From Candidatus Zixiibacteriota bacterium (GTDB lineage: Bacteria; Zixibacteria; MSB-5A5; GN15; JACZUZ01), in assembly GCA_024280775.1 (NCBI GenBank), contig JAJRPM010000015.1, positions 1-64,000 of the forward strand: a DNA stretch of 64,000 nucleotides, written 5' to 3'. The position numbers and the translations under genes are program-made. The notes beneath the pieces are model-generated. The model saw only the letters and a program-made list of their open reading frames with translations. It searched no databases and was not told the DNA's origin. Positions 13,958 to 16,084 of the stretch are shown here, piece after piece. How positions within the stretch are numbered: position 1 is the first letter of the stretch; each line of letters begins with the position of its first letter.

Positions 13958-15034
13958 TCAGTTCTTCAACTCATCTGAGTCTGCGAGACTCTCGGAAATT
14001 GATTTGGCCGCGTATTCGACCATAGAAAGCAACTTAGAGTAACGCATCCTGGTTGGTCCGATTACTGCGATTTTGCCCTCTATAGAGCCAACTTTGTAAC
14101 TGGCGCTAACTACCGAACAGCGTTTCATCTCTTCAAGGTTGTTCTCATCACCTATTTTGACAATGACTCCGGTACTTGTAGTTCCATCACCGTTGTCACA
14201 CTTAAGCTCCTGCGAAAGTTTCTCCTGGTTTTCTAAAGTGCGTACAAATTGCACTAGTTGCTTACGGTCTGCAAACTCCGGTTGTCCGAGCAAATTCTCG
14301 GCTCCAACTACATGCAATTGAATATCTGAAACTCCCTCCCAGATTCCAGACTCCGGATCAATAAACAGCTTCAAAAGTCGTGCATTGCCAGTTACATTCG
14401 CCAGTCGGCTGGTGATAGTCCTGCGGATTTCACCTAATGTCAGCCCGCATAATTTCTCATTGAGAATCTGCTCCAACGTTCGCATATCCTCATCAGGCAA
14501 TGAAGCCTCAACTTCAAGAATCACCGAACGCGCCAACCCAGATTTGACTACCAGAACCACCAAAGCCTTATCGGAATTCAACGGAACCAATTCCAATCGT
14601 GTCAAAGTTCCTTCGTCAAATCGCGGGGCAATTGTAACTCCCATTTGCATCGCGATGTCCGCCAAGGCGCGTGTTGATTGCCCGAGAATCGCATCGATGG
14701 ATTTACCCGAGTTAAACAGAGAGTTGCGAATTTTCTTACGTTCGGCGGCGCTCAAGGATTCGGGTTTCAAGAGGCTATCTACATATAGCCTATAACCAAT
14801 ATCAGTTGGCACCCTACCAGCGGAAGTATGCGGCTGAGAGATAAAGCCCATATCCTCCAAATCCTGCATGGTATTGCGGATAGTGGCCGACGAGAGGCCC
14901 ATGCCAAACTTGGTGGCAATAACCCGCGAACCAACCGGGTCGGCGGTTGCGACATAGTGGTCGATTAGATTCTGGAGAACCTCTCGCTCCCGGGTATTTA
15001 GATTTTCAAATGCCATATTTTTTTCGTTCTTCAA
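13958..15034 (-). CDS. hrcA: heat-inducible transcription repressor HrcA
   Basis: Repressor that binds CIRCE operators and is kept active by chaperonin. The winged helix contains 'SSATIRNTMQDLEDMGFI', and the phrase 'PHTSAGRVPTDIGYRLYVD' is the family's signature. The rest is the GAF-like dimer domain, ending in 'VIGPTRMRYSKLLSMVEYAA'. The frame can start at TTG 15034, which has AGAGGG six bases upstream, or at ATG 15016 with a weaker site; the choice is open. First gene of the operon with grpE, dnaK, dnaJ and prmA. A promoter and CIRCE-like site precede it at 15090-15145. Confidence 0.95.
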   Translation of the reverse strand: MKNEKNMAFENLNTREREVLQNLIDHYVATADPVGSRVIATKFGMGLSSATIRNTMQDLEDMGFISQPHTSAGRVPTDIGYRLYVDSLLKPESLSAAERKKIRNSLFNSGKSIDAILGQSTRALADIAMQMGVTIAPRFDEGTLTRLELVPLNSDKALVVLVVKSGLARSVILEVEASLPDEDMRTLEQILNEKLCGLTLGEIRRTITSRLANVTGNARLLKLFIDPESGIWEGVSDIQLHVVGAENLLGQPEFADRKQLVQFVRTLENQEKLSQELKCDNGDGTTSTGVIVKIGDENNLEEMKRCSVVSASYKVGSIEGKIAVIGPTRMRYSKLLSMVEYAAKSISESLADSDELKN

Positions 15035-15082
15035 ATTGTCCCTCTCGCTTCGGCCTGCCGTTTCAGAGTCAGAAGCGCAGAT

Positions 15083-15108
15083 AAAAAAACTGGCAGTCCT
15101 TCTGCCAG
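15083..15108 (-). terminator. intrinsic-terminator-like hairpin in the nadK-hrcA gap
   Basis: Read on the minus strand, CTGGCAG, a five-base loop and CTGCCAG are followed by seven T residues. This is a complete intrinsic terminator by shape. It lies downstream of nadK but also just downstream of the predicted hrcA start point, so it may terminate the nadK transcript, attenuate hrcA, or both. Confidence 0.6.
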
Positions 15109-15116
15109 AGCGCTAA
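15090..15116 (-). promoter_or_regulatory. CIRCE-like operator of hrcA
   Basis: On the minus strand the site reads TTAGCGCTC, nine bases, GACTGCCAG. Against the CIRCE consensus TTAGCACTC-N9-GAGTGCTAA, the first arm matches eight of nine bases and the second six of nine. The spacing is exact, and it starts immediately after the -10 of the hrcA promoter, the usual place for HrcA to block initiation. The weaker second arm is shared with the terminator-like hairpin. Confidence 0.55.
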
Positions 15117-15117
15117 T

Positions 15118-15145
15118 AATTTACACGCCAAAGCTTATATGTCAA
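15118..15145 (-). promoter_or_regulatory. promoter of the hrcA heat-shock operon
   Basis: Minus strand: a perfect TTGACA at 15145-15140, a 16-bp spacer and TAAATT at 15123-15118 (four of six matches). The predicted start point falls inside the first arm of the CIRCE-like site. It lies about 85 bases before the hrcA start. Confidence 0.6.
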
Positions 15146-15214
15146 CTAATAAGCCTAAGTTCCCTACTTCAATATGTGTGGCGTTTTGTGTGGAAATATG
15201 GATTTTCGGGGAGA

Positions 15215-16084
15215 TTATTCAGGAGCAACCATCGGAGCCCGGCCCCAATGCAGTTTTTGCCTGATAACTTTGTAAAATGAGCTATTTTTGAATCTGAGCA
15301 ATCTCACCGAATTTTTCCCTTTTCGCACGACAAACTCGGCGGATTCAGGCAATTCGATTGTAAATTGGCCATCGATAGTCAATGCGCTACATCCGTGACT
15401 GGAGTATACCCTGACAACAAGCTCGGTCTCATCAGAGAACACAAACGGCCTGCTGAAAAACCCGAATGCAGAAATCGGTGAAACTACCAATGCGCGCATT
15501 TCAGGAGCTAAAATCGGTCCCCCGACTGATAACGAATAAGCGGTAGAACCTGTCGGAGTGGCGACAATTAGTCCATCAGCGCGGTAATTTGCGATCGGAC
15601 GATCCCCGCTAAAGAGGTCAATTGTGATAATCCTACTAGTGGCGCCCCGGTCGATAACCACTTCATTGAGAGCCGGCGGTGTCTCAACGCCATCAAGAAC
15701 GGTTTCGAGAGTCATGCACTCATCGATATGATAATCCCCTGCGACTATTCGTTCTAGATTTGCTTCCATTTCAGCCAGCGAAGACTCGGTCAGAAACCCC
15801 AGAGTGCCAACATTGACCCCAAAAATAGGAACCCCCGATCCTGCGACCAAACGAGCAGAAGTGAGTATTGTGCCGTCCCCGCCAAGTGAAACCAAAATAT
15901 CAATTGATTCACGTAATTCATTGTCTGGCAGTGCATTTTCCGGCTGGCCCAAAAGTTCCGCTGCGGATTGAGAGAGTTTTATAGCATGACCGGTGCGTTG
16001 CCCCCAGCCGATAATCTGCCTGGCGGTTGGCCCAGTTTCGGGGCGTTTCGATTTAGGATTGAGATTAAGGCCGAAGGTCAGCAA
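15215..16084 (-). CDS. nadK: NAD kinase
   Basis: Phosphorylates NAD to NADP. 289 residues. The signature 'LGGDGTILTSARL' lies near residues 65-77, with 'VNVGTLGFLTE' and the second family motif 'DGLIVATPTGSTAYSLSVGGP' region further on. It is 59 bases downstream of dxs and probably co-transcribed; NADPH is needed by the next step of the same isoprenoid pathway (DXR). The sequence ends in a proline-rich short tail. Confidence 0.95.
   Translation of the reverse strand: MLTFGLNLNPKSKRPETGPTARQIIGWGQRTGHAIKLSQSAAELLGQPENALPDNELRESIDILVSLGGDGTILTSARLVAGSGVPIFGVNVGTLGFLTESSLAEMEANLERIVAGDYHIDECMTLETVLDGVETPPALNEVVIDRGATSRIITIDLFSGDRPIANYRADGLIVATPTGSTAYSLSVGGPILAPEMRALVVSPISAFGFFSRPFVFSDETELVVRVYSSHGCSALTIDGQFTIELPESAEFVVRKGKNSVRLLRFKNSSFYKVIRQKLHWGRAPMVAPE

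What the first reader, a model, noticed from the sequence alone, without database searches (positions are those of the whole stretch)
15083..15145. Terminator-shaped hairpin built into the hrcA operator
A TTGACA promoter runs directly into a CIRCE-like site (eight of nine plus six of nine matches, nine-base spacer). The weak second arm is replaced by one arm of a perfect seven-base-pair hairpin that is followed by seven T residues. The same bases would thus serve as repressor site, as the nadK terminator, and possibly as an attenuator of hrcA itself. The nascent hrcA leader would form a terminator within its first 30 bases.
Basis: partly seen in the sequence, partly recalled or inferred. Interest (0 to 1): 0.6.

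Follow-up and report, generated by a model that had tools for sequence, protein, structure and literature searches.

The report
Terminator hairpin inside heat-shock operator
In one family of uncultured Zixibacteria the switch DNA of the hrcA-dnaK heat-shock genes also spells an RNA stop signal right where the message should begin, which is a small but conserved and testable twist on a well-known switch.

Summary
On the minus strand, TTGACA-N16-TAAATT runs into TTAGCGCTC-N9-GACTGCCAG (a CIRCE-type site), and bases 15108-15090 form a perfect 7-bp hairpin followed by T7. The genome's only CIRCE within 3 mismatches, before groES, is TTAGCGCTC-N9-GAGCGCTAA, so the left arm is 9/9 in the local dialect; the right arm is 8/9 to GAGTGCCAG, used at hrcA in other families. 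In the two other family genomes with a readable hrcA, both arms and TGGCAG are 24/24 identical, all 3 free spacer bases differ, and the stem varies (7, 8, 9 bp) while the T tract stays against it. The exact core occurs in 3 of 132 phylum genomes, all this family. One relative (G003) has a different upstream gene with its own terminator-like hairpin, so it is not just a nadK terminator. Best reading: an intrinsic terminator built into the HrcA operator at the start site, stopping upstream read-through and clipping part of hrcA's own transcripts to about 25-30 nt. Attenuation is untested. In passing: a second palindrome, CTGCCANNNTGGCAG, recurs before hrcA, groES, rnr and Lon-like genes in sister families, suggesting an unknown second heat-shock regulator.

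The parts
15140..15145 (-). -35 element TTGACA of the hrcA promoter
   Evidence: identical in G001 and G003; a TTGAC in the last 220 nt of 99 of 107 hrcA leaders of the phylum
15118..15123 (-). -10 element TAAATT (16-bp spacer); start site inferred about 15113-15109
   Evidence: TAGATT in G001, TACATT in G003; start not mapped
15108..15116 (-). CIRCE left arm TTAGCGCTC, 9/9 in the genome's own groES dialect
   Evidence: 9/9 identical in G001 and G003
15090..15098 (-). CIRCE right arm GACTGCCAG; bases 15096-15090 are also the 3' strand of the hairpin
15090..15108 (-). Hairpin CTGGCAG-AAGGA-CTGCCAG, 7 bp, -10.5 kcal/mol
   Evidence: 8 bp in G001, 9 bp in G003
15083..15089 (-). T7 tract abutting the stem
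   Evidence: T7 in G001, T6 in G003
13958..15034 (-). hrcA (start TTG 15034 or ATG 15016), followed by grpE, dnaK, dnaJ
   Evidence: Pfam HrcA and HrcA_DNA-bdg; grpE, dnaK and dnaJ named from their translations, not by a family search
15215..16084 (-). nadK, upstream co-directional gene
   Evidence: Pfam NAD_kinase and NAD_kinase_C

Best explanation
The block 15145-15083 is the promoter and operator of the hrcA-grpE-dnaK-dnaJ operon, in which the CIRCE operator has been reshaped so that its right arm pairs with the first six spacer bases (plus the last left-arm base) as an intrinsic-terminator hairpin directly followed by a T tract. As DNA the bases bind HrcA over the start site (inferred from CIRCE identity). 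As RNA they stop transcription near 15083: read-through from upstream cannot enter the heat-shock operon, and a share of the operon's own transcripts ends after about 25-30 nt. Full hrcA-dnaK mRNA then needs both release of HrcA and escape past the hairpin. Shown: sequence, position, conservation, restriction to one family. Inferred: start site, HrcA binding, termination in vivo. Not shown: any signal that controls read-through.
For: Strict hairpin+T criterion: 0 in 20 shuffles. Kept in 3 of 3 f1 genomes with a readable hrcA: 24 of 24 arm/TGGCAG bases identical to both relatives while the 3 free bases differ 3 of 3 in both, upstream flank 38/69 and 22/69, downstream leader 26/63 and 19/63. The stem is 7/8/9 bp (-10.5, -11.4, -16.4 kcal/mol) and the T tract always starts at the stem's end, even where two bases (AG, pairing with CT) stand after the right arm in G003. 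The upstream gene differs in G003 and has a terminator-like hairpin of its own, so upstream termination alone does not explain it. Exact core only in f1 among 132 phylum genomes. CIRCE ancestry of the site across the phylum.
Against: Only three genomes carry it and the stem core shows no compensatory change, so conservation of CIRCE arms and of the hairpin cannot be fully separated. A strong terminator within 30 nt of the start would throttle a chaperone operon; no antiterminator, second conserved promoter or Rfam family was found. HrcA binding, start site and termination are not measured. CIRCE score alone is within chance for 64 kb, and a loose terminator scan shows no excess.
Confidence: 0.55

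Rival explanations
1. Insulator only. The hairpin stops transcription arriving from upstream (nadK in this genus), but polymerase starting within the left arm escapes it, because the 5' strand is incomplete or the early complex is resistant. The overlap with CIRCE is economy of space.
For: In G000 and G001 no other terminator-like site lies within 250 nt upstream of the -35; in f4, 26 of 43 leaders examined have one there.
Against: G003 keeps a stronger hairpin although it has another terminator-like hairpin upstream of its promoter. The predicted start precedes the whole stem.
Confidence: 0.2
2. DNA-level double operator. TGGCAG and CTGCCA are half-sites of a second DNA-binding regulator overlapping CIRCE; RNA hairpin and T tract are by-products.
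For: The related palindrome CTGCCANNNTGGCAG sits at hrcA in 37 of 48 f4 leaders, upstream of the groES CIRCE in 5 of 27 f4 loci, and before rnr in f2, f3, f4, f16 and f17. The everted TGGCAG-N5-CTGCCA also occurs in 4 of 48 f4 hrcA leaders.
Against: f1 hrcA has the half-sites everted and lacks the third one. G000 and G001 have no exact CTGCCANNNTGGCAG, and none of their TGCCANNNTGGCA sites was seen ahead of hrcA, groES or rnr. f1 does not group with f4 in the HrcA tree (weak 74/70). It does not explain the T tract placed at the stem's end in all three.
Confidence: 0.15
3. The hairpin is a 5'-end structure that protects the hrcA-dnaK mRNA from decay, rather than a terminator.
For: f4 leaders carry a 6-8 bp CUGCCA/UGGCAG hairpin near the 5' end, mostly without a T tract.
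Against: Does not explain the stem-abutting T6-T7 in all f1 genomes and in no other leader (inside the leader) of the 51 scanned by the strict rule.
Confidence: 0.08

Closest known systems
HrcA/CIRCE operator (consensus TTAGCACTC-N9-GAGTGCTAA)
   Same: Position over the start site ahead of hrcA-grpE-dnaK-dnaJ, arm spacing N9, left arm; variants with GCC in an arm are in print (Desulfovibrio vulgaris groESL cTgGCACTC-[N9]-GAGTGCcAA; passage of PMC545781). HrcA covering the start site is shown in Campylobacter jejuni (passages of PMC7464140).
   Different: Here the spacer is complementary to the right arm and a T tract follows, which makes a terminator; asymmetric, 14/18.
Intrinsic (Rho-independent) terminator
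   Same: Short G+C-rich stem of 7-9 bp, 3-5 nt loop, T6-T7 directly after it.
   Different: Lies after a promoter, beginning about 1-5 nt from the inferred start, and shares bases with a repressor site.
pyrG-type leader attenuator of Bacillus subtilis (mechanism mostly recalled; passages on it in PMC4448216; the primary paper is not held)
   Same: Terminator in the leader close to the start site, so bases at the transcript's 5' end matter.
   Different: No run of identical bases at the start for reiterative transcription, no known signal; here the element is also a CIRCE.
HspR/HrcA dual control in Campylobacter jejuni (PMC7464140, passages)
   Same: CIRCE over the start site plus a second palindrome upstream at groE, like the CTGCCANNNTGGCAG sites of f4.
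   Different: The second motif is not HAIR (CTTGAGT-N7-ACTCAAG); its regulator is unknown.

Membership tests
CIRCE operator | Two 9-base inverted arms close to TTAGCACTC/GAGTGCTAA with 9-base spacer | tested here: met
   14/18 to consensus and to own dialect; 17/18 to TTAGCGCTC/GAGTGCCAG. Weak by score alone (shuffles)
CIRCE operator | At promoter/start site of hrcA-dnaK or groE operon, with hrcA in the genome | tested here: met
CIRCE operator | Bound by HrcA; derepressed on heat | not testable with these tools
   needs footprint and reporter
Intrinsic terminator | G+C-rich stem of at least 5 bp, loop 3-8, T-rich tail directly after | tested here: met
Intrinsic terminator | Kept in relatives with tail abutting the stem | tested here: met
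   3 of 3 f1 leaders
Intrinsic terminator | Transcript 3' ends at the T tract | not testable with these tools
   no RNA data
Regulated leader attenuator | Alternative antiterminator structure, or a sensed signal, that changes read-through | tested here: inconclusive
   none found: no Rfam match, the 38-nt leaders fold only as the terminator hairpin, the downstream leader is not conserved. A factor-dependent signal is not excluded

The most novel reading that the evidence does not exclude
A heat-shock operator that is its own attenuator: in this Zixibacteria family the CIRCE right arm doubles as a terminator strand, so HrcA occupancy and hairpin-dependent termination act on the same bases within 30 nt of the start, making a tiny RNA in place of chaperone mRNA. 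The dyad arose on the same CIRCE arm where sister family f4 built another palindrome (CTGCCANNNTGGCAG) for a second, still unknown, proteostasis regulator that also marks groES, rnr and Lon-like genes.
Probability: 0.2. Interest if true: 0.7.

Novelty: new variant of a known kind. Interest (0 to 1): 0.47.

Why it matters
Repressor operators and intrinsic terminators are normally separate modules. A conserved overlap at the very start of the hrcA-dnaK operon would mean that one stretch is under selection both as DNA and as RNA, and asks whether polymerase can be terminated efficiently within 30 nt of its start in vivo. It also shows how a very conserved operator can drift: the phylum goes from textbook CIRCE (16-18 of 18 in f5, f9, f18, f19) to 14 with a terminator in f1 and to sites as low as 9 with another palindrome in f4. 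That second palindrome points to an undescribed heat-shock regulator in Zixibacteria.

Tried and rejected
Known RNA family: none at E up to 1 in 14900-15400. 'Just the nadK terminator': rejected as the whole story because G003 has another upstream gene with its own terminator-like hairpin and keeps the element; kept as part of the function in G000 and G001. Hairpin as a general feature of hrcA leaders: rejected; with a looser rule 9 of 89 non-f1 leaders also show something terminator-like after the -35 that the script chose, among them CIRCE sites folded as long stems, hairpins at or before the real promoter, and one f4 leader (L215, G076) with a GACTGCCA/TGGCAGTC stem and TTTTA. More family members: genome contigs returned one locus only, the same contig as in G001 by its length; G002 shows no hrcA in its incomplete genome. 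No covariance model was built, because the f1 set is three sequences. No structure prediction was run.

Rows dropped: 107 leaders from the 112 genomes with an HrcA match were used; not taken were G049, G112, G098, G120 and G121 (contig ends or partial hits). L224 (G051) is a partial hit whose leader position is inferred. L169 to L224 were stretches of 129-654 nt. The strict hairpin scan covered 51 of the 107 leaders; the looser comparison used 92 leaders with at least 350 nt and a TTGAC in range. The HrcA tree used 26 of the 30 first loci; L006, L009, L016 and L029, whose frames hold an internal stop, were not entered.

Papers: passages only for PMC4245973, PMC545781, PMC4448216, PMC7464140; the rest were search listings. 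Searches for a CIRCE overlapping a terminator listed no paper that by title or abstract start describes it; for the second motif; for Zixibacteria heat shock, (none of the ten listed papers holds the word Zixibacteria).

Full report
What is there. On the minus strand nadK (16084-15215) is followed by a promoter with a perfect TTGACA (15145-15140) and TAAATT (15123-15118), then TTAGCGCTC (15116-15108), TGGCAGAAG, GACTGCCAG (15098-15090), T7 (15089-15083), and hrcA (TTG 15034 or ATG 15016), grpE, dnaK, dnaJ (hrcA and nadK by Pfam). The hairpin CTGGCAG-AAGGA-CTGCCAG spans 15108-15090.

Chance. A strict hairpin-plus-T criterion finds 2 sites in 64 kb and none in 20 shuffles, although the loose scan shows no excess of terminator-like sites (12 against 12.2). 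In the whole own genome the perfect form CTGGCAG-N5-CTGCCAG occurs only here; the other 15 sites have 2 mismatches, against 9 for the reversed control pattern. By contrast a 14/18 CIRCE score appears in 9 of 20 shuffles of the window, so the CIRCE label needs other support.

That support is comparative. The genome's only site within 3 mismatches of CIRCE is TTAGCGCTC-N9-GAGCGCTAA ahead of groES, so the left arm here is a perfect match to the local dialect; G001 and G003 each hold one site of the same dialect (their genes were not checked). The right arm GACTGCCAG differs by one base from GAGTGCCAG, found at hrcA in G022, G016, G019 (f2) and G093 (f9). In 107 hrcA leaders of the phylum, CIRCE sits at the same place with 16-18 of 18 matches in f5, f9, f18 and f19, 14-16 in f2, 15-17 in f3, 14 in f1, and 9-16 in f4; f6-f8, f12 and f14-f17 show no clear CIRCE (8-12), and f10 and f13 a variable one (12-17). 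The organism belongs to Candidatus Zixiibacteriota, judged by a relative in the same genus (84% identical HrcA).

The hairpin is a family trait. G000, G001 and G003 are the f1 genomes with a readable hrcA. Against G000, both relatives keep 9/9 left-arm, 6/6 TGGCAG and 9/9 right-arm bases, while the three free spacer bases differ 3 of 3 in each; the flanks are 38/69 and 22/69 identical upstream and 26/63 and 19/63 downstream. The stem is 7, 8 and 9 bp and the tail T7, T7 and T6, always starting where the stem ends (energies). In G003 two bases after the right arm pair with the left-arm CT, and the tail begins after them. Among 132 genomes searched for the core, exact matches occur only in these three. 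Among the 51 leaders scanned by the strict rule only these three have a tail with 6 or more T directly after a stem of 6 bp or more inside the leader; two f3 leaders have such a site just upstream of the promoter.

What it does. Two observations bear on the target of termination. In G000 and G001 there is no other terminator-like site within 250 nt upstream of the -35, so the hairpin is the best candidate end of the upstream gene's transcripts. In G003 the upstream gene is a different, lysine-rich one, followed by an 11-bp terminator-like hairpin upstream of the promoter, and still the in-operator hairpin is kept and is the strongest of the three. I therefore prefer a terminator that works on whatever crosses it, hrcA's own transcripts included. 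With the start expected at 15113-15109 the RNA would be about 25-30 nt. Nothing here shows how, or whether, read-through is regulated; the leader downstream is not conserved and no known RNA family matches. Start, binding and termination are inferred.

A second motif. f4 leaders do something similar but different: the same right arm pairs with a downstream TGGCAG, giving CTGCCANNNTGGCAG (37 of 48 exact, 44 of 48 within 2 mismatches; 0 exact in the 59 other leaders). This exact palindrome also begins 86-111 nt before the groES CIRCE in 5 of 27 f4 loci (30 loci looked at, groES not recognised in 3), lies about 40-70 nt before the rnr start in f2, f3, f4, f16 and f17 loci (21 loci seen; one protein confirmed by Pfam as an RNB-domain protein, the rest by N-terminal resemblance), and upstream of two LonC-like protease genes. 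By my addition one search lists 56 sites in 60 genomes against 38 for the reversed pattern, so the total is only mildly raised and the case rests on where the sites lie. Some sites lie inside genes and are chance (for example inside an open frame of L240). In f1 it is absent in exact form and only imperfect versions precede rnr. In the HrcA tree f1 falls outside f3+f4, weakly supported and rooted only by midpoint, so the f1 terminator and the f4 palindrome look like separate elaborations of the same CIRCE arm.

Known or new. CIRCE and intrinsic terminators are known; C. jejuni HrcA is known to sit on the start site (PMC7464140, passages). I found no description of a CIRCE arm serving as a terminator strand in the listings. 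I call it a new variant of a known kind.

Noticed in passing
hrcA leaders of f4 (e.g. L008, L010, L022), groES loci L053, L055, L057, L066, L075, rnr loci L138-L147, L237-L239, L241, L242: Palindrome CTGCCANNNTGGCAG recurs upstream of hrcA, groES, rnr and LonC-like genes in Zixibacteria; possible operator of an undescribed second heat-shock/proteostasis regulator.
   Followed up: partly
L031 (own groES); sites of the same dialect in G001 and G003: Family f1 has shifted the CIRCE dialect at position 6 (A to G, with T to C in the other arm) at groES, and the hrcA left arm follows it, suggesting co-evolution with its HrcA.
   Followed up: no
window 36373, minus strand: The only other strict terminator in the window: a 12-bp stem AAGGAAGCTCTC/GAGAGCTTCCTT with loop ACTT, then T5.
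   Followed up: no
L230, L231 (f10), L244 (f19): The same palindrome lies about 100-180 nt upstream of a gene (in L230 beginning MITHSDTKLIIGKEEYAPYAAEMHYFRI) which looks like a family-35 glycoside hydrolase (recalled, not tested).
   Followed up: no
window 15034 / 15016: hrcA start is ambiguous: TTG 15034 has GAGAGGG a few bases before it; ATG 15016 begins the MAFENL that relatives share but has a poor ribosome site.
   Followed up: no
L215 (G076, f4): One f4 hrcA leader has an 8-bp GACTGCCA/TGGCAGTC hairpin followed by TTTTA, a near-terminator on the other side of the CIRCE arm.
   Followed up: no
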